Shown one piece after another: positions 12,815-22,618 of a DNA stretch of 32,723 nt. This DNA is from an uncultured Chthonomonadaceae bacterium (GTDB lineage Bacteria; Armatimonadota; Fimbriimonadia; Fimbriimonadales; Fimbriimonadaceae), in NCBI GenBank assembly GCA_946479035.1, contig CAMLDW010000026.1, positions 1-32,723 of the forward strand, read 5' to 3'. The notes below the pieces were generated by a model. The model saw only the letters and a program-made list of their open reading frames with translations, did no database searches and was not told where the DNA came from. A program made the position numbers and the translations under genes. Within the stretch, counting starts at the first letter, position 1, and each line of letters begins with the position of its first letter.

Positions 12815-12897
12815 CAGCGTCTTTTCGGCGTCAAGCAGGGTGGAACCGGGCCACCCCAGGGCGTTGTTCCAGCCGGTAGTAAACTGTGCGAGTTCTC

Positions 12898-15141
12898 ATG
12901 CCTATGGGACGCTTTCTGGCCCTCGTCGTTTTGCTGGCCGCGCCCCTGCTTGTGCGCGCCGACAACACGCCGCCGAGCGTCAAGCTCACGCTCTCAAAAG
13001 CGACCGCTGCACCAGGCGAAGAGGTCAAGGGCACGGTCGAGGTCACCTTTGCGCCTGGCCTGCACGGCTACCAAAACCCACCCGATCCCAACTACGTCCT
13101 TCCCGTCGAGGTCGTCGCCGGCGAAGGGACGAAGCTCAAGTCTGTCAGCTATCCAAAGGGGGTGAAGGAGGTCGTCGCTGGCGTGATGTCGGCGGTCTAC
13201 ACCGAGTCCGTTTCGTTTCCCGTCGTGCTCTTTGCGCCGACGGCGCCAGGTCCTGCGAAACTGAACCTCACATTCAAGTACCAGCAGTGCGACGACCAGA
13301 CCTGCTATCCGCCTTCGACGGTCGCCCTGACTACAAACCTCACCGTCGCTGGAAAGACAGCGCCCGCGCCAGACGCAGCCCTGGGCACTGTCGCGCCGAG
13401 CCAGGCGAAGTTCGACATCGAGGTCCCGCTCAAACTGGTCACCGTCGGCACCGAGTACACCGTCACGCTGATCGTGTCGCCGGGCAGGGGGCTCGTGCTC
13501 GTGCGCCCTCGCGGCGCACAGAGCGCCTTCCTCGTCACCGGCCCAGGCGTGCTCTCGAGCGTGTCCCCCGCAGGCAAAGAGCGGCTGATCTCCGGCAAGT
13601 CGGTCACGGTCTACTCGCGCGACGTCAAGGTTCCGGTCGTTCTCAAGGCACCGAATGAGCCCGGTCGACGCGACCTCGAGGTCGAAGTCTCCTACACCCA
13701 GGCCGACGAAAGACAGATCTTCGACGTCCAGACGAAGACAGTCCGCTTCAGCTTCGAGTTCGTCGCGCCGCCAGTGGCGATAGGTGCCGCGGGCCAAGAG
13801 CCGCCCACGACCAAGGTCCAACAGGTCACGCAGCCCGCGAAGTCCGGGCTCGAAGGGTTCGTCGACCGCGCGCTCGAAAGCGGCAACTGGTTCTTTATCA
13901 TCGGCGCAGCGCTCCTGGTCGGCCTCGCGCTTTGCCTCACGCCGTGCGTCTTCCCGATGATTCCGGTCACGGTCACTTACTTCGCAAACCAGGGCGCGAA
14001 GACGAACGCGGGCCGTTTCTCGCTCGGGCTCTTCTACGCGCTCGGGATCGCCGTCACCTACGGCACCGTCGGCGGTATCTCTGCTGCGCTCGGCGGGGCG
14101 GTCGGGGCGCTCTTCACCAAACCCTGGTTCGTGATCGCGCTCGCGCTGCTGCTCGTCGCGCTCGCGCTCTCGATGTTCGACGTCTGGGAGATTCGGCTTC
14201 CAGGCTTCATCCAGCGCAACCTCAAGGGCCGCAGCGGCCCGGTCGGGTCGCTCATCATGGGCCTGCTCATGGGCTTCGCGGCCGCTCCTTGCGCGGGCGC
14301 GCTGGTCGGCGCTTTTGCGGCCAAGGTCGCACAGATCGGCTCGGTCTCGACCGGCGTGGGCTTCTTCGCGACGATCGGGCTCGGCATGGGCCTTCCGTTC
14401 ATGGTCCTGGCCTCGATGTCCTCGGGCGCCAAGACCCTGCCGAAGTCCGGCGCATGGCTCAAGACGACCAAGGCGGTCCTCGGCCTCGTCGTGCTCTCCA
14501 TCGCGGCGGGCTACCTGTTCCAAGGTTTCGGGCTCAAGCCCGACGCCGCGACCACCAAGCTCGCTTGGATCGCGCTCTACGCCGCCTTTGCCGTCTACCT
14601 CCTGTTCTTCGACCGCACCGACTCCACCCGCGCCGTCGCCATCATCAAAGGCGTCGCGTGCGTCGCGATCGGCCTCTTCGTCGGTGTGGCATACAGCGAC
14701 TATCAAGGCATCAGGTTCCAAGAGCGCCTGGCCCAAGCCCAGGCTGGCGGCAGCGGGCAGGCGAACGGCCAGATCGTCGGCGACACGATCAACTGGATCC
14801 CTTACAACGACAAGAGCTTCGCCGACGCAGTCGCGTCTGGCAAGCCGATCATGATCGACGGCAAGGCGGACTGGTGCCTCCGGTGCCACGAGATCGAGCG
14901 CGACGTCTTTAAGTCGCCCGAAGGGCTCGTCGCGCTCTCCGGCGTCTACCTCATGTCCATCGACTGGTCCACCGGCGTCGATCCTGCCTACGAGAAGATG
15001 ACCAGAGAGCGGTTCAAGATCTCTGGGCTCCCGCACGTCGTCTTCATGGGGCCAGGCGGCAAGGACGAGTTCTCCGTCAACGACATTACGTCGGTCGAGG
15101 AGCTGAAGCAGCACCTTCGCAAGGCCGGAGCAAAGCTATGA
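12898..15141 (+). CDS. dsbD: Thiol:disulfide interchange protein DsbD
   Basis: 747 residues with the three DsbD parts. After a signal peptide, an N-terminal periplasmic domain carries C131 and C136 (YQQCDDQTCYPP), and a second Ig-like domain without Cys extends to about residue 305. Eight or so membrane helices follow, with the redox pair in LALCLTPCVFPM (C350) and AAAPCAGALV (C465). A C-terminal thioredoxin domain has WCLRC (C660, C663). DsbD moves electrons from cytoplasmic thioredoxin to periplasmic proteins, for disulfide repair and cytochrome maturation. Start options are GTG 12886 and ATG 12898 or 12904; TAAACT at 12880-12885 argues for 12898. The stop overlaps kdsA (ATGA). Confidence 0.94.
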   Translation: MPMGRFLALVVLLAAPLLVRADNTPPSVKLTLSKATAAPGEEVKGTVEVTFAPGLHGYQNPPDPNYVLPVEVVAGEGTKLKSVSYPKGVKEVVAGVMSAVYTESVSFPVVLFAPTAPGPAKLNLTFKYQQCDDQTCYPPSTVALTTNLTVAGKTAPAPDAALGTVAPSQAKFDIEVPLKLVTVGTEYTVTLIVSPGRGLVLVRPRGAQSAFLVTGPGVLSSVSPAGKERLISGKSVTVYSRDVKVPVVLKAPNEPGRRDLEVEVSYTQADERQIFDVQTKTVRFSFEFVAPPVAIGAAGQEPPTTKVQQVTQPAKSGLEGFVDRALESGNWFFIIGAALLVGLALCLTPCVFPMIPVTVTYFANQGAKTNAGRFSLGLFYALGIAVTYGTVGGISAALGGAVGALFTKPWFVIALALLLVALALSMFDVWEIRLPGFIQRNLKGRSGPVGSLIMGLLMGFAAAPCAGALVGAFAAKVAQIGSVSTGVGFFATIGLGMGLPFMVLASMSSGAKTLPKSGAWLKTTKAVLGLVVLSIAAGYLFQGFGLKPDAATTKLAWIALYAAFAVYLLFFDRTDSTRAVAIIKGVACVAIGLFVGVAYSDYQGIRFQERLAQAQAGGSGQANGQIVGDTINWIPYNDKSFADAVASGKPIMIDGKADWCLRCHEIERDVFKSPEGLVALSGVYLMSIDWSTGVDPAYEKMTRERFKISGLPHVVFMGPGGKDEFSVNDITSVEELKQHLRKAGAKL

Positions 15142-17212: not shown

Positions 17213-18370
17213 GTGCCCCAGCAAGTCGACATCTTCGATACCACGCTCCGCGACGGCGAGCAGAGCCCCGGCGTCCACCTCGACATGGCGCAGAAGCTCG
17301 AGATCGCGCGCATGCTCGAGGACCTCGGCGTCAACGTCATCGAGGCTGGCTTCCCCATCTCCTCCCCAGGCGACTTCGAGAGCGTCAACACCCTCAGCAA
17401 GGAGATGAAGCGCGTCACCGTCTGCGGGCTCACCCGCGCCGTCTCCAAAGACATCGAGTGCGCCGCCGAAGCGCTAAGACCCGCGAAAAAGCCGCGCATC
17501 CACACCGGCCTCGGCGTCAGCAAGAACCACCTCGAGCACAAACTGAAACTGACCAAAGAGCAGGCGCTCGAAAAGGGAGTGAACGCCGTCAAGCTCGCCA
17601 AGTCGTTCGTGGACGACGTCGAGTACTTCATGGAGGACTCCGGCCGCGGCTTCCTCGACCACCCCGACTACCTCTACAAGGTCGTCGAAGAGGTGATCAA
17701 TGCCGGCGCGACCGTCATCAACATGCCCGACACCACCGGCTACATGTTCCCCACCGAGTACCGCGACTTCTTCGCCAACGTCATCAGCAACGTCCCGAAC
17801 AGCGACAGGGCGAAGTTCTCCTGCCACTGCCACAACGACCTGGGGATGGCGACCGCCAACACCCTCGGCGGCGTGGTCGGCGGTGCCCGCCAGGTCGAAG
17901 TGACGGTCAACGGCATCGGCGAGCGCGCCGGAAACACCTCGCTCGAAGAGGTCGTGATGGCGCTGCACGTCCGCCACGACTTCTTCGGCCTGGAGACCAC
18001 CATCGACACGCACAAGCTGCTCGCTGCCTCGCGGCTCGTCTCACAGCACACCGGAATGATCGTGCAGCGCAACAAGGCCGTCGTCGGAGCGAACGCCTAT
18101 GCGCACTCTTCTGGGATCCATCAGGACGGCGTGCTCAAGGAGCGCACGACCTACGAGATCATCGCGCCGGAGCTGGTCGGGGCGGCGAAGTCGGAGATCA
18201 TCCTGACGGCGCGCTCCGGGCGCCACGGGCTCAAGCACCGGCTCAGCGAGCTCGGCTTCGACTTCCCAGCCGAGCGGTTCGAGAAGATCTACACCAAGTT
18301 CCTCGAGGTCGCGGACAAAAAGAGCGAGATCATGGACGACGACCTCCGCACGCTGGTCGAGTCGGCTTAG
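17213..18370 (+). CDS. leuA: 2-isopropylmalate synthase, short form without the regulatory domain
   Basis: 385 residues covering the catalytic TIM barrel and both linker subdomains. DTTLRDGEQSPG lies at residues 9-20 (metal-binding Asp14 and neighbours), GFPISSPGDFE follows, then the metal-ligand pair H205 and H207 in SCHCHNDLGMATANTLGG. NGIGERAGNTSLEE and HSSGIHQDGVLKER complete the IPMS-specific set. Typical LeuA is 500-520 residues with a C-terminal allosteric leucine-binding domain; this one stops right after linker II, and no remnant of that domain follows the TAG in any frame I examined. It condenses 2-oxoisovalerate with acetyl-CoA, the first step of leucine synthesis. It may be insensitive to leucine feedback or may be a related synthase. 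Confidence 0.9.
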   Translation: MPQQVDIFDTTLRDGEQSPGVHLDMAQKLEIARMLEDLGVNVIEAGFPISSPGDFESVNTLSKEMKRVTVCGLTRAVSKDIECAAEALRPAKKPRIHTGLGVSKNHLEHKLKLTKEQALEKGVNAVKLAKSFVDDVEYFMEDSGRGFLDHPDYLYKVVEEVINAGATVINMPDTTGYMFPTEYRDFFANVISNVPNSDRAKFSCHCHNDLGMATANTLGGVVGGARQVEVTVNGIGERAGNTSLEEVVMALHVRHDFFGLETTIDTHKLLAASRLVSQHTGMIVQRNKAVVGANAYAHSSGIHQDGVLKERTTYEIIAPELVGAAKSEIILTARSGRHGLKHRLSELGFDFPAERFEKIYTKFLEVADKKSEIMDDDLRTLVESA

Positions 18371-18445: not shown

Positions 18446-18838
18446 TTACTCCTCTCCAGGAGAAACCGTCTGGGTATAGCCAGGACTGCAGGTGCAACAT
18501 CCATACGGAACGTCGCTCGGAGCGTTCTTCGTGCAGAGATAGGGGAACGAACTCTGCACCCAAACCTCGCGAAACCGCTTCCAGGCTTGGGAGTCCGGTC
18601 GACCGCCACTGCAATTCTCCGCCGTGTTGCAGAAGACGTAGAAGCAGGTCTTCTCCCCGTAGACGGCACCGTCAGGAGCAGGGGGCAGGTCTTTGCAACT
18701 CATCGAGACGTAGTTCCCGTTTGGGATCTTGATGGTGACGGTCTCAGAGATGCCGTAGCAGACTGTCGCATAGGCGGCGGCACATGTGGCCGCGCCGGTA
18801 GCGACAGCTGCGAGTCGAGTCAGTTGAGTGTTCTTCAT
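18446..18838 (-). CDS. Cys-rich secreted protein of unknown function
   Basis: 130 residues from the ATG at 18838, which has AGGA about 9 bp upstream. N-terminal residues 1-27 look like a signal peptide: MKNTQLTR, then an Ala/Val-rich stretch ending near AAYATVCYG. The mature part has about nine cysteines, with spaced CFYVFC and a CC-containing CCTC near the end, and ends in Pro/Gly/Glu. No family is recognised. It is the last gene of the AT-rich cassette, 8 bp after the pseudopilin stop. The many Cys fit an exported disulfide-bonded protein and may be a client of the CxxC protein encoded upstream; that link is inference. Confidence 0.65.
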   Translation of the reverse strand: MKNTQLTRLAAVATGAATCAAAYATVCYGISETVTIKIPNGNYVSMSCKDLPPAPDGAVYGEKTCFYVFCNTAENCSGGRPDSQAWKRFREVWVQSSFPYLCTKNAPSDVPYGCCTCSPGYTQTVSPGEE

Positions 18839-18846
18839 GATGTGTC

Positions 18847-19389
18847 CTATAGGTTGGATTCCGGAGGGACGAGAGAGGGGTCGCAGAGCCCCTTGATCGT
18901 CTTCAGTCGGTCGGCGGGAACGGACGAAAAGCTGCCGTTCTCCCTTACGAAGAAAAATACAGAGCCAGGAAGGTAGATGTTTGTAGAAATGAGGTGGTTC
19001 ATGTCCCGAATAAGTGGGTAATCGCCACCGCGCATCGTGCGGCACCCTTCCGATGCGGATACGAAAGCTTCTGGAAAGACGCTGTTTGTCGATCCTACCA
19101 TGAGGTAATGGAACTCCGCATTAGGCTCCTTGCTCTTTGGGCACGCCAACGGCTTCGGATAGTAGACCTGGAACGCCGGCCAGACGACGCTGTTTGGCGG
19201 ATAGCAGTCGTAGTCGCCCTCATAGAGCTTCATGGCGAGATAGATTTGGTGCATGTTCGATACGCAAACGACGTCCTTTGCGCGATCCTTCGCCTTTGAG
19301 AACACGGGCAACATAATGCTTACCACGACCGACAAGATCAGGACCACGACCAAGATTTCCGTCAGAGAGAAGGCTTTCTTCTGTTGCAT
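18847..19389 (-). CDS. Prepilin-like protein (type II/IV pseudopilin, H...NG variant)
   Basis: 180 residues from the ATG at 19389, behind a GGAGG site. The prepilin start is clear: MQQKKA, then FSLTEILVVVLILSVVVSIM with the conserved Glu at +5, cleaved between A6 and F7. The hydrophobic helix is followed by FSKAKDRAKDV, a basic stretch typical of the family. The C-terminal half has DMNHLIS...FFFVRENGSF, resembling the H-X9-DG pattern of the DUF1559-like prepilins, but with NG instead of DG. Alanine, not glycine, precedes the cut site. Five Cys are present in the body. It is co-encoded with two membrane-related proteins and a secreted Cys-rich protein. Confidence 0.85.
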   Translation of the reverse strand: MQQKKAFSLTEILVVVLILSVVVSIMLPVFSKAKDRAKDVVCVSNMHQIYLAMKLYEGDYDCYPPNSVVWPAFQVYYPKPLACPKSKEPNAEFHYLMVGSTNSVFPEAFVSASEGCRTMRGGDYPLIRDMNHLISTNIYLPGSVFFFVRENGSFSSVPADRLKTIKGLCDPSLVPPESNL

Positions 19390-19390
19390 A

Positions 19391-20002
19391 TTATGATTCC
19401 TCCCAGAGTTCTGGGAACCACTTGGTGACCACAAGTGCCACCACGACGACGACCGCAATGACCGTCGTTAAAGCGAGGTGCCTGGTCAGCGGGTAATAGC
19501 TGTAAACGTCGTCTCGCAGTAGGGCTTGCGCCCAGCCATAAAGCAGAGCGACGATGCCTAAGGCGACGAACATCAACGTCACGCGCTCGCGAGACGGCCG
19601 ACTTGGTGTAACACAGTATAGAACGATACCAAGCACGATCGAGATTGGGATCCAGGCATAAGCAGGCCATGGGTTACGGTCCGCGAGGTCGAAAAGTCCG
19701 TGCCAGTATAAGGGACCGCGAAAATGAAAGAGCACGAACCAGGCGAACGCATAGCCGACGCCCAAGGCCAGCAACCCGTCTCGTCCAATGGGGATCGCAT
19801 ACCAGACCGCGATCGCGCAGAGTAGCGCGATAATTAGCGGTGACCCGAACGGAAGCATGACATACCCATAGGGGCTGTGCTGGAAAAACCACTCGTGGAG
19901 GTTGTGATAGAGACTGTCTGCCAAAGATAGAAACGCGGTCGGCACGACAACGAGAAGTGGCAGAGCGAGGTGGCGCTCAGGAGTCCAGTCAGCTTCGTTC
20001 AT
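19391..20002 (-). CDS. Multi-span membrane protein of unknown function
   Basis: 203 residues with about six hydrophobic segments: near residues 13-32, 44-66, 75-93, 113-131, 142-160 and 175-195. A soluble-facing charged loop TPSRPSRERV sits between helices 4 and 5. No family is recognised from motifs; it contains no HExxH, CxxC or obvious peptidase or acyltransferase signature. ATG at 20002 overlaps the upstream stop (ATGA); its own TAA is one base from the pseudopilin ATG. It is in the AT-richer block and probably acts with the pseudopilin and CxxC protein. Confidence 0.7.
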   Translation of the reverse strand: MNEADWTPERHLALPLLVVVPTAFLSLADSLYHNLHEWFFQHSPYGYVMLPFGSPLIIALLCAIAVWYAIPIGRDGLLALGVGYAFAWFVLFHFRGPLYWHGLFDLADRNPWPAYAWIPISIVLGIVLYCVTPSRPSRERVTLMFVALGIVALLYGWAQALLRDDVYSYYPLTRHLALTTVIAVVVVVALVVTKWFPELWEES

Positions 20003-20556
20003 TTTCCTGCCCTCAGTTCGAAGTCCTCGTCGGGATTGTGCTGGATATAGGTGATACGTCCGTCTGCGCCAAGTTCGTAATACCTGGGAGAAAAAGCGAC
20101 GTTCAAGTCCCTAACGACGGAAGTGTCGGCAAACCGAATGTTCTTCGAGCGTGTGGCCTCAGCAAGCTTAGTGAAGTAGTAGTTGTCGCCCGTCGCGTCA
20201 ATAATCAAGACCTTGGGGTTCCGAGCAAGTCGGTCTGTCCGCTCTGACTCGGGTAACGAACATGACGGGCAAGACGCGTAAACGACGATCCTGCGATGGT
20301 CACCGACTAACTCCCGGATCGAACTTGGAGGCAACTGGCCCAATTCCAGATCGCCAATCAGAGAGGGAAGGTTCGGTACAAACGGATCGACGGGAACGTA
20401 GCTCGCTGCGGCAAAGCGCATTCCGAATACATCGAGCGCACAAAGGCTGAACCACGCAGGAACAGAAAGCACCACGATACCAATGGCACCAGGCCTGTAA
20501 GCCTTCGCTGTCCGTATCACCCCATTGGACTTCCTACTTGCTCCGATAGCCAGCAT
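19999..20556 (-). CDS. Membrane-anchored thioredoxin-like protein with CPSC motif
   Basis: 185 residues from the ATG at 20556 (a TTG at 20640 would add 28 residues). One transmembrane helix lies near residues 22-42, after a basic start, so the rest should face the periplasm. IVVYASCPSCSLPES around C96 and C99 looks like a thioredoxin active site after a beta strand, with KVLIIDATGDN as the following strand, although the usual Trp-Cys is replaced and overall identity to TlpA or DsbE is not evident. The last part has ELGADGRITYIQH, like the DG-turn beta hairpin of thioredoxin-fold proteins. It leads the cassette after the repeat region and overlaps the membrane-protein gene by 4 bp. Confidence 0.7.
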   Translation of the reverse strand: MLAIGASRKSNGVIRTAKAYRPGAIGIVVLSVPAWFSLCALDVFGMRFAAASYVPVDPFVPNLPSLIGDLELGQLPPSSIRELVGDHRRIVVYASCPSCSLPESERTDRLARNPKVLIIDATGDNYYFTKLAEATRSKNIRFADTSVVRDLNVAFSPRYYELGADGRITYIQHNPDEDFELRAGK

Positions 20557-20605
20557 GGCACGAAGTCCAAAGAAGCTGGTTTGCTTCCATTGGCTTCTGT
20601 TATCC

Positions 20606-20830
20606 TCAGACAGGTTCAAATGAACCTGCCGCCGGCTCAAATGTGGCTGTTTTAGGGTCGAGGACGGGCGTTTCGACTTGAAAACGGCTCTGCTCGACTC
20701 GAAAACGACGATCTTCGACTCGAAGACAGCTCTCTTCGACTTGAAAACGGCCTTCTTCGACTCGAGAATAGCTCTCCTCGACTCGAAAACGGCGATCTTC
20801 GACGCGAAGGCGGGGCGTAGTTAGTAGCAC
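20606..20830 (-). CDS. Possible small protein of heptapeptide repeats
   Basis: 74 codons from a GTG at 20830, with GGAG eight bases ahead. The frame stays open through the 21-bp tandem repeat because its period is a multiple of three, and the units read as heptapeptides of the type RVEDRRF, RVEESYS, RVEEGRF, QVEESCL. The ending DPKTATFEPAAGSFEPV continues the period in weaker form. It lies upstream of and in the same direction as the CxxC-protein gene (49-bp gap), so it might be the first cistron of the cassette. Equally it could be non-coding repeat. Translation is unproven. Confidence 0.3.
   Translation of the reverse strand: MLLTTPRLRVEDRRFRVEESYSRVEEGRFQVEESCLRVEDRRFRVEQSRFQVETPVLDPKTATFEPAAGSFEPV
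20611..20628. repeat. 18-bp palindrome before the CxxC-protein gene
   Basis: Eight-bp perfect arms CAGGTTCA and TGAACCTG surround AA. It lies at the edge of the tandem repeat, 55 bp upstream of the ATG at 20556, and could be an operator for the cassette. It also falls in the repeat period, so it may merely be a degenerate unit. Confidence 0.4.
20673..20819 (+). repeat. 21-bp tandem repeat, seven clear units
   Basis: Seven units with starts at exactly 21-bp spacing (20673, 20694, 20715, 20736, 20757, 20778, 20799) share the core TCGACTCGAAAACG with a few changes each; the last is more diverged. About three weaker units continue to 20610. Each unit equals seven codons. Confidence 0.9.
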
Positions 20831-21253: not shown

Positions 21254-22618
21254 TTACCCCGCCAGGCTCCCCATCGGGTCCCAAGGGTCCAGAACCACCG
21301 GCTCTTGCGAAAGCACTTCGACCACCGAGGCCGGCACGTGGCGCTTCTGCACCACCACCTCGAAGTTGTACTCCTCGAACCACCGGTCCGTCATCTGGAA
21401 GTAGCCCTTCTCCCCCGCCTCGTCGCCCCACGAGTTCTCCACGCGCCACTTGCGCGGCGACCCCGCGTCGTCCAGGTCCACTCCCGTAAAGACCATCGCG
21501 TGCGTCATCATCGAGTGCCGGTACATCAGCCGCTCCGCCTTGCTCAGACCGAGGTCGGACCCGTACAGCAGGTCATACGCGTAGAGGTCGAGGTCCATCG
21601 AGCCCAGGTCGCGGCTCAGGTACTTCCCTACGTCGCAGCCGAACCAGACCGGGTCGCCGTCCTTGATCTGCTCGATCGCCGCGCGCTTCATCGTTCCGAG
21701 GTCGACGTTCACGTACGCGATCGGCTCTCCGCCCACCACGTTCCCCAAGAACTTCACGGTGTAGAGCTTGTTGAACGAGTGCTGTGGCCGCGGGTCGTGG
21801 ATCAGGCAAACTAGGTCGCCAAGGTCCATCCCGACGTACTTCTTGAAAAAACCCTGCGGCGTCAGGCGACCGGCGCGCGTGAACTTCTTGTCCTTGTCGC
21901 GCCACTGCCACTCGAACTCCGTCGGTGGCACCCCCAGGTGCACGCACAGCATCTTATACACTTGCGCCATCTGCTCCTCGCGCATCGCCTCGAGCTTCTT
22001 AGGAGCGGCGCCGCCCTCGTGCGCCTCGCGCAGGCGCACCGCAAACTCGCGCAGCCGACCTGTGACCTGCGCGTTCATCGGGCCGGTCGCCGAGGAGCTC
22101 TCCGTCTCCGGCATTACGCTCTTCGGCACCACGCCGTACTTGTTCACCAGGTTGATGAACATGTGCCACTGCCCGCCGTCCTGGATCGGGTCGCTGAGCA
22201 GATGGTCGAGCACGCGGCTCCCCACTGGCTCGTCCAACGTCTCGATGATGTTCGTCAGGAAGTAGTTCGCCTTTTCCAGTTTGTCGAAGAAGCACTGGTA
22301 CGCCTGGCTCAGCTCCCACTCTTCGCCCAGGTTCATCGAGGCGATGCACTTTGCGCGGAAGGTGTTTAGGGCGGCAAACAGCCAGCACCGGCCGGACTGC
22401 TTCTGCGCCGTTGCAGCGTTCTCCGGCAAGTGGTGCGAGAACGAGCGGTCGATCCGGGCCGCCACCTCGCGGTCGACCGCCACTTTCGCCAGCGGCGCGG
22501 CGGTCACGGCGTTCATCGCCGCCAGGTTCTTCGGGTCGTTGCGGAAAGCCCGCTCGAAGGCCGACAGGGTCTCCGGGGTCAGCGCGGTCGAGGGCTTGCC
22601 GACAAGGGTGCTTGCCAT
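21254..22618 (-). CDS. pepC: Aminopeptidase C / bleomycin hydrolase (peptidase C1B)
   Basis: 454 residues, the family's usual length. The papain-like triad is complete: Cys78 in QKQSGRCWLFAALN, His in MMTHAMVFTGV and Asn in WRVENSWGDEAGEKGYF. Other family signatures are LSQAYQCFFDKLEKANYFL, DGGQWHMFINLVNKYGVVPK and DPVWFGCDVGKYL. Known members form barrel-like hexamers in the cytoplasm and release N-terminal residues from peptides. The C-terminal region, which in the family enters the active site, ends here in DPWDPMGSLAG. A TAAAAT ending six bases before the ATG gives it its own start site, overlapping the stop codon of the GNAT gene. Confidence 0.95.
   Translation of the reverse strand: MASTLVGKPSTALTPETLSAFERAFRNDPKNLAAMNAVTAAPLAKVAVDREVAARIDRSFSHHLPENAATAQKQSGRCWLFAALNTFRAKCIASMNLGEEWELSQAYQCFFDKLEKANYFLTNIIETLDEPVGSRVLDHLLSDPIQDGGQWHMFINLVNKYGVVPKSVMPETESSSATGPMNAQVTGRLREFAVRLREAHEGGAAPKKLEAMREEQMAQVYKMLCVHLGVPPTEFEWQWRDKDKKFTRAGRLTPQGFFKKYVGMDLGDLVCLIHDPRPQHSFNKLYTVKFLGNVVGGEPIAYVNVDLGTMKRAAIEQIKDGDPVWFGCDVGKYLSRDLGSMDLDLYAYDLLYGSDLGLSKAERLMYRHSMMTHAMVFTGVDLDDAGSPRKWRVENSWGDEAGEKGYFQMTDRWFEEYNFEVVVQKRHVPASVVEVLSQEPVVLDPWDPMGSLAG

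What the first reader, a model, noticed from the sequence alone, without database searches (positions are those of the whole stretch)
18446..20830. AT-richer cassette: CxxC membrane protein, polytopic protein, pseudopilin and Cys-rich secreted protein
Four genes in one overlapping or nearly overlapping run (gaps of -4, 1 and 8 bp), clearly lower in GC than both flanks, combine a pseudopilin, a single-span protein with CPSC, an unrecognised multi-span protein and an exported protein with about nine Cys. No general pilus machinery (ATPase, secretin) is here. I infer a dedicated surface or secretion unit in which the CxxC protein handles disulfides of the Cys-rich product, perhaps using housekeeping pilin machinery elsewhere. 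The lower GC suggests lateral transfer or relaxed selection.
Basis: partly seen in the sequence, partly recalled or inferred. Interest (0 to 1): 0.7.

Follow-up and report, generated by a model that had tools for sequence, protein, structure and literature searches.

The report
Thioredoxin-pseudopilin-cysteine-rich protein gene module
Four neighbouring genes form a recurring but, as far as I could find, undescribed bacterial gene module that pairs a membrane-bound disulfide-handling protein with a pilus-like protein and a small secreted protein packed with cysteines, and related modules occur in many genomes of one poorly studied phylum.

Summary
The four genes are real and at the stated places, and they are a unit. 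Profiles of the polytopic protein and of the pseudopilin pick out the same ten genomes, five of which supplied no profile sequence. Of 11 further cassettes read, eight keep the order CxxC protein, polytopic protein, pseudopilin, Cys-rich protein; three are decayed. The CxxC protein is a membrane-anchored thioredoxin of TlpA/ResA/CcmG type. Its profile opens a wider family: 54 of 61 places have a pseudopilin directly downstream and 37 also a signal-bearing Cys-rich ORF (46 and 30 of 53 without the eight profile seeds). Controls: 1 and 1 of 47 other genes; 0 and 2 of 18 Chloroflexota thioredoxins. The window is subtype A, with the polytopic protein; B and C lack it. C pairs a CxC thioredoxin with a pilin-like protein that has no prepilin motif. 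Pilus ATPase, prepilin peptidase and secretin lie elsewhere in 12 of 12 relatives tested. Best reading: the thioredoxin corrects disulfides of the co-encoded exported Cys-rich protein beside a pseudopilin. The redox step is inferred; the product's and the polytopic protein's roles are unknown; lateral transfer is plausible, not shown.

The parts
19999..20556 (-). Membrane-anchored thioredoxin-like protein (185 aa from ATG 20556; 213 aa if TTG 20640 is the start); CPSC encoded at 20260-20271; one N-terminal span
   Evidence: family alignment A12 with near-invariant G, CxxC and PR; profile hit to DsbE/CcmG 3kh7 E 1.8e-5 and to ResA
19391..20002 (-). Polytopic membrane protein, 203 aa, motif FRGPLYWHGLFD, no Pfam or NCBIfam family above cut-off
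   Evidence: relatives in 10 of 291 Armatimonadota genomes, all among the 113 genomes of the class
18847..19389 (-). Pseudopilin, 180 aa, prepilin motif and GspG-like N-terminal helix, own C-terminal domain (D-x-N-H ... R-E-N-G) with conserved Cys
   Evidence: alignment A8
18446..18838 (-). Secreted Cys-rich protein, 130 aa, signal-peptide-like N-terminus, 9 Cys in the mature part
   Evidence: 63% identical relative P0005; alignment A9
20672..20808 (.). Tandem array of about 6.5 units of 21 bp (TCGACTCGAAAACGGC core) upstream of the operon; role unknown
   Evidence: no exact copy of the 16-base core in the other 181 loci held

Best explanation
This is a dedicated folding and display or export module. 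Shown by sequence: four co-directional, overlapping or nearly overlapping genes, kept together across genomes, encoding (1) a membrane-anchored TlpA/ResA/CcmG-type thioredoxin, (2) a polytopic membrane protein, (3) a pseudopilin with its own conserved C-terminal domain and (4) a protein with a signal peptide and about nine Cys. Inferred: the thioredoxin domain faces the periplasm; after export the Cys-rich protein is oxidised there; the thioredoxin reduces or isomerises its disulfides (and perhaps those of the pseudopilin) until the right ones form; the pseudopilin, processed by the housekeeping prepilin peptidase, holds the product at the membrane or moves it out with housekeeping type IV pilus/type II secretion machinery; the polytopic protein is a subtype-specific accessory in the membrane. 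What the finished Cys-rich protein does outside is not known; a surface or secreted structural or binding protein is my best guess.
For: Co-occurrence: the polytopic profile finds 10 of 291 genomes; full-length pseudopilin hits of 118 bits or more fall in the same 10 genomes (12 places; next best 88 bits). Five of the ten supplied sequences to the profiles; the other five (G004, G030, G065, G078, G082) were found by both searches. Order kept in loci L016-L020, L063, L067. Wider family: 54 of 61 thioredoxin places have a pseudopilin directly downstream and 37 a signal-bearing Cys-rich ORF; without the 8 profile seeds 46 and 30 of 53; control genes 1 and 1 of 47; Chloroflexota thioredoxins 0 and 2 of 18. 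Thioredoxin identity. Mature Cys counts are even in 29 of 37 (p about 8e-4, sequences related), as expected of paired disulfides. dN/dS 0.05-0.17 in the 4 of 8 comparisons where dS could be estimated. Coupled change: the five CxC thioredoxins all go with pilin-like partners lacking the prepilin motif. Host machinery elsewhere in 12 of 12 genomes.
Against: No experiment and no usable structure (pLDDT 54 and 35). The window thioredoxin alone is below Pfam's Redoxin cut-off (14.3 against 26.6). By my count 14 of 62 aligned rows lack a clear CxxC or CxC (a few are truncated or generic thioredoxins). The polytopic protein has no conserved Cys, so it is not an obvious electron partner like DsbD or DsbB. 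Subtype C shows the module can do without prepilin processing. Of 40 further places read only 27 had the pilin and 25 the Cys-rich ORF. The window's own Cys count is odd (nine).
Confidence: 0.55

Rival explanations
1. Pilin-first reading: the thioredoxin serves mainly the pseudopilin's own conserved Cys, and the Cys-rich protein is a tip or surface-attached partner of a pseudopilus, an adhesin-like structure.
For: In subtype A the pseudopilin is the best conserved of the four between loci (28-47% identity to the window) and has Cys at three conserved positions (C83 and C116 invariant, C169 nearly so); Fimbriimonas ginsengisoli is described as bearing fimbriae and 79 PulG-like genes (PMC4072686, passages read).
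Against: Pilin ORFs outside subtype A have few Cys (0-11 per stop-to-stop ORF, mostly 0-5) while their Cys-rich partners keep 6-14; subtype C partners lack the prepilin motif.
Confidence: 0.2
2. Antagonism reading: the Cys-rich protein is a diverging secreted antibacterial protein, and the polytopic protein (or the ~200-aa single-span protein of subtype B) is its immunity or export partner.
For: Cys-rich products diverge strongly between subtype A loci (19-26% identity to the window apart from P0005); the accessory membrane protein differs by subtype; patchy occurrence and decayed copies.
Against: No match to known defence families (PADLOC); between G066 and G067 the Cys-rich gene is the best conserved of the three (91% identity, dN/dS 0.066), with no sign of diversifying selection; small bacteriocins are not known to me to need a pseudopilin (recalled).
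Confidence: 0.13
3. Maturation reading, like methylamine dehydrogenase: thioredoxin and polytopic protein play the parts of MauD and MauE for a Cys-rich small subunit of a periplasmic enzyme.
For: Same kinds of parts: anchored thioredoxin, polytopic protein, disulfide-rich small protein (Mau layout recalled).
Against: No Mau family matched; no large enzyme subunit gene in the cassette; most places lack the polytopic gene (10 of 61 have it).
Confidence: 0.05
4. Ordinary accident: unrelated small genes gathered in an AT-richer hot spot.
For: AT-richer DNA and orphan genes are common in such spots (general knowledge).
Against: Order and strand repeat across genomes with controls near zero.
Confidence: 0.02

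Closest known systems
TlpA / ResA / CcmG(DsbE) membrane-anchored thioredoxins
   Same: N-terminal span, DPxxG stretch, CxxC, Pro loop; profile match to 3kh7 DsbE E 1.8e-5 and to ResA
   Different: Pro-Arg in the loop (at least 90% of 50 members); few members match a Pfam family (10 of 50 match Redoxin at E<=0.01); a pseudopilin gene is next to it in 54 of 61 places
GspG-type pseudopilins and the H-X9-DG/DUF1559 proteins
   Same: Prepilin cleavage motif and N-terminal helix; a D-x-N-H ... G pattern near the C-terminus that recalls H-X9-DG (resemblance recalled, not tested)
   Different: Below the GspG equivalog cut-off (31.3 against 88.85) and the DUF1559 cut-off (20.2 against 23.3); own conserved Cys; no ATPase or secretin in the cassette
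Methylamine dehydrogenase maturation genes (MauD, MauE, MauA)
   Same: Works-like resemblance only: thioredoxin, polytopic protein and disulfide-rich product (recalled)
   Different: No sequence match, no large subunit, a pseudopilin is present
Verru_Chthon cassette (TIGR02596, TIGR02599)
   Same: A named cassette that includes prepilin-like proteins; 3 of 12 and 1 of 12 pilins match weakly
   Different: To my recall no thioredoxin and no Cys-rich product in that cassette; not tested

Membership tests
TlpA/ResA/CcmG thioredoxins | CxxC in a thioredoxin-type sequence | tested here: met
   Both Cys at least 90% conserved in the 50 members of A12; aligns with the CPSC of DsbE 3kh7
TlpA/ResA/CcmG thioredoxins | cis-Pro loop opposite the active site | tested here: met
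   P169-R170 at least 90% conserved and the Pro aligned with that of 3kh7; cis geometry not tested
TlpA/ResA/CcmG thioredoxins | Passes a curated family cut-off | tested here: not met
   Window protein Redoxin 14.3 bits against 26.6
TlpA/ResA/CcmG thioredoxins | Thiol-disulfide activity | not testable with these tools
   Needs an assay
Type IV pilin-like proteins | Prepilin peptidase motif followed by hydrophobic helix | tested here: met
   PF07963 22.3 against 21.2; TIGR02532 21.2 against 16.3
GspG major pseudopilin | Equivalog cut-off TIGR01710 | tested here: not met
   31.3 against 88.85 bits
DUF1559 / SBP_bac_10 family | PF07596 cut-off | tested here: not met
   20.2 against 23.3 bits
Mau maturation system | MauD/MauE/MauA family members | tested here: not met
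   No Mau family in Pfam or NCBIfam scans of the window proteins or in the Pfam scan of 13 polytopic members
Anti-phage defence systems | PADLOC models | tested here: not met
   0 families for the four window proteins

The most novel reading that the evidence does not exclude
A system spread through Armatimonadota, not described in what I could search, in which a dedicated thioredoxin and a pseudopilin (or, in subtype C, a pilin-like domain freed from pilus assembly) fold and present one co-encoded, highly variable, 6-14-Cys secreted protein: a modular way for these bacteria to make disulfide-rich extracellular proteins.
Probability: 0.4. Interest if true: 0.78.

Novelty: new variant of a known kind. 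Interest (0 to 1): 0.62.

Why it matters
Armatimonadota genomes carry many pseudopilins of unknown purpose (79 PulG-like genes in one published genome, PMC4072686, passages read). This module ties a subset of them to one partner set and gives a testable job: co-operation with a dedicated thioredoxin and a disulfide-rich secreted product. Subtype C, where the pilin domain persists without its prepilin signal, suggests that the domain itself, not the filament, is what the module needs. It also gives two protein families (the polytopic and the Cys-rich) a functional context although the Pfam and NCBIfam scans found no family for them.

Tried and rejected
Selenoprotein idea: in G030 (locus L064) TGA stands at the first Cys of the CxxC. 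Rejected: no strong tRNA-Sec match in that genome (best E 9.9e-8, the level of other tRNAs, against 4e-13 to 3e-17 where strong), and its Cys-rich gene has its signal part and its mature part in different frames, so it reads as a decayed copy. One search used stricter filters, so absence is not absolute.

Repeat ORF 20606-20830 as a gene: rejected; tandem repeat, no family match above cut-off. No homologue search was run with it.

Hit G033 (locus L021): false positive, no cassette seen there.

Structure prediction of the polytopic and Cys-rich proteins: too poor to search, so no fold search was run. Sequences from the genome search were not handed to that tool, because its stated rule does not list them.

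Defence system: no PADLOC match. DsbD (window 12886-15141) as part of the module: rejected, a phmmer search with it found no relative in the ORFs of the module loci used.

Searches that found nothing: genome contigs and viral contigs with the polytopic alignment, plasmids with the Cys-rich protein. Rows dropped: of 62 thioredoxin rows, 50 went into A12; 12 were left out (near-duplicates, copies with a stop or at contig ends, low-scoring ones). The near-identical G078 copy is not counted apart from G082 in the cassette tally.

Limits: the genome search scored only the best candidates of each genome (up to 30 per genome, 10, 11, 8), so counts are lower bounds.

Not-in-print statements rest only (open-licence PMC papers); of PMC4072686 I saw passages, of the other papers the listings.
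Full report
Where it is. The window reads as bacterial chromosome. In the genome-contig scan its aminopeptidase-like protein was closest (59%) to a Fimbriimonadaceae genome (L001), so I place it in or near the class Fimbriimonadia, phylum Armatimonadota (inference). No whole genome is held for the window. The cassette lies between 2-isopropylmalate synthase (17213-18370) and a C1-type aminopeptidase (21254-22618; name recalled, NCBIfam gave none).

What is there. One search confirms four genes with the stated spacings of -4, 1 and 8 bp. The pseudopilin passes PF07963 and TIGR02532. The polytopic and Cys-rich proteins match no Pfam or NCBIfam family above cut-off. Among about 5.8 billion proteins, at a sensitivity that needs shared five-residue words, the polytopic protein has one relative (P0002, 40%), the CxxC protein only a near-identical fragment, and the Cys-rich protein one relative (P0005, 63%). 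Eight of the nine mature Cys are kept in P0005. GC and GC3 of the four genes lie below those of all 21 other window genes measured.

It is a unit. With G001 as centre, a two-sequence polytopic profile found 6 of 113 class genomes; one (G033) is a false hit. The other places showed CxxC protein, polytopic, pseudopilin, Cys-rich, in that order and on one strand, in G071, G011, G027 (two tandem copies), G035 and G072. An eight-member profile then found 10 of 291 phylum genomes, all among the 113 of the class. A pseudopilin profile found full-length hits of 118 bits or more at 12 places in the same ten genomes, the next hit being 88 bits. The two searches are not wholly independent: five of the ten genomes supplied sequences to both profiles; G004, G030, G065, G078 and G082 are new and were found by both. 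Eleven of the 12 pilin places lie beside a polytopic hit; at the twelfth (G082 contig 41) I found a diverged polytopic frame by eye. Leaving out the near-identical G078, I read 11 copies besides the window: eight with all four genes (G071, G011, G027 twice, G035, G072, G004, G082 contig 61) and three decayed (G030: stop in the thioredoxin and frame break in the Cys-rich gene; G065: no thioredoxin found; G082 contig 41: thioredoxin domain missing). Among the eight, G011 has CLSS in place of CxxC and the G082 Cys-rich frame has no clear start codon. G013 contig 114 has a thioredoxin, a pilin broken by a stop and no polytopic gene. In G072, G004 and G082 a second thioredoxin-like gene (CGCxxC) lies upstream.

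The CxxC protein is a thioredoxin. A nine-member profile found 61 places in 37 of 113 class genomes. Fifty members aligned (A12) keep only the G of DPxxG, both Cys, and Pro-Arg at 90% or more. The profile matches solved DsbE/CcmG (3kh7, E 1.8e-5) and, more weakly, ResA structures, with CxxC on CxxC and Pro on Pro. Ten of 50 members match Redoxin at E 0.01 or better. Fold and active site are well supported; activity is inferred. By my count 14 of the 62 rows lack a clear CxxC or CxC.

A wider module. Of the 61 places, eight were seeds of the profile; the rest were chosen by the thioredoxin alone. Fifty-four have a pseudopilin directly downstream on the same strand, and 37 of 61 also a signal-bearing ORF of 60-175 aa with at least six mature Cys (a slightly different rule gave 54 and 36). 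Without the seeds: 46 and 30 of 53. Some pilin matches are weak (15-22 bits for four subtype C members). Of the seven without a pilin, one is at a contig end, one has a short pilin fragment at a contig end, one has the pilin upstream, and four are among the five lowest-scoring hits (17.6 bits or less) and look like ordinary thioredoxins or diverged copies. Controls: 47 other genes in the same loci, 1 with a pilin downstream and 1 with a Cys-rich ORF; 18 places from the Chloroflexota search (18 of 400 genomes at E 1e-8, best 44 bits; phylum by record title), 0 with a pilin and 2 with a Cys-rich ORF.

Spread. A12 matches 85 of 291 Armatimonadota genomes at E 1e-6. Since Chloroflexota thioredoxins reach 44 bits, the safer figure is 56 of 291 with 50 bits or more (90 places), 39 of them in the class (recounted). 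Of 40 further places read, 27 have the pilin and 25 the Cys-rich ORF. No match at E 1e-6 in three genomes labelled as other phyla. Planctomycetota and Verrucomicrobiota, which I recall as rich in pseudopilins, were not searched, so restriction to Armatimonadota is not shown.

Subtypes. A (the window): polytopic protein between thioredoxin and pilin; 10 of the 61 places. B: no polytopic protein; often a ~200-aa single-span protein after the Cys-rich gene (relatives of one such protein in 20 ORFs of the loci, itself included). C (L093, L096, L101, L105, L125): CxC thioredoxin and a pilin-like protein without prepilin motif. The link between active-site type and partner type argues that thioredoxin and pilin-like protein work together; five cases, possibly of common descent.

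The product. Cys-rich proteins of B and C share a rough frame C-x-W ... C ... GC ... C ... CC ... C (by eye). Those of subtype A resemble them only weakly (hhalign probability 88 over 35 columns; composition can cause this), so common descent is open. Mature Cys counts are even in 29 of 37 (p 8e-4; among those with 8 or more, 26 of 34, p 0.003); the sequences are related, the ORF rule required six Cys, and the window's own count is nine.

Selection and history. dN/dS is 0.17 for the thioredoxin of the G027 tandem copies and 0.05-0.08 for thioredoxin, pilin and Cys-rich genes between G066 and G067; dS is high in several of these (0.9-3.1), and four of the eight comparisons were saturated. Thioredoxin and pilin distances over 47 modules correlate (r 0.56, 0 of 2000 permutations as high); without a species tree, kinship of hosts may explain this. 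Module GC is lower than flanks in 46 of 53 loci (mean -0.048). Patchiness, different neighbours and decayed copies fit repeated gain and loss; transfer itself is not shown.

Machinery. In 12 chosen genomes with modules: secretion/pilus ATPase 12 of 12, prepilin peptidase 12 of 12 (one match each), secretin 12 of 12. The Fimbriimonas ginsengisoli genome paper reports PilB, C, D, Q, M and 79 PulG-like genes and, in the passages I read, no such module (PMC4072686). The window's own genome could not be checked.

Mechanism. Most likely the thioredoxin corrects disulfides of the exported Cys-rich partner near the pseudopilin, which uses shared machinery where it has a prepilin motif. Shown: parts, order, conservation, active site. 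Inferred: substrate, direction of the redox reaction, display or export. Unknown: role of the polytopic protein (no conserved Cys) and of the finished product.

Known or new. The thioredoxin and pilin kinds are known; the polytopic and Cys-rich families and the combination I did not find named in the family libraries or in print with the searches listed under Tried and rejected.

Noticed in passing
window 20672-20808: About 6.5 tandem 21-bp units (TCGACTCGAAAACGGC core) directly upstream of the operon; 0 of 100 shuffles give as many matches, and no exact copy of the core in the other 181 loci held.
   Followed up: partly
window 12886-15141: DsbD-like disulfide reductase (NCBIfam PRK00293 245 bits, below its cut-off of 330) about 3.3 kb from the cassette; no relative found in the other module loci searched.
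   Followed up: partly
L064:7779-7781: TGA in place of the first Cys codon of the thioredoxin CxxC in G030; the genome shows no strong tRNA-Sec and the copy looks decayed.
   Followed up: yes
L093, L096, L101, L105, L125: Subtype C: pilin-like proteins that keep the C-terminal domain but have no prepilin motif, paired with CxC thioredoxins.
   Followed up: partly
L104:5722-6345 and 19 other ORFs: A ~200-aa single-span protein family that follows the Cys-rich gene in many subtype B modules; no known name sought.
   Followed up: partly
L020:8795-9202, L063:9062-9502, L067:8815-9231: A second, CGCxxC thioredoxin-like gene upstream of some subtype A modules.
   Followed up: partly
Fimbriimonadia-class genomes listed: First-look pseudopilin candidates (not verified) run from 8 to 150 per listed genome.
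   Followed up: no
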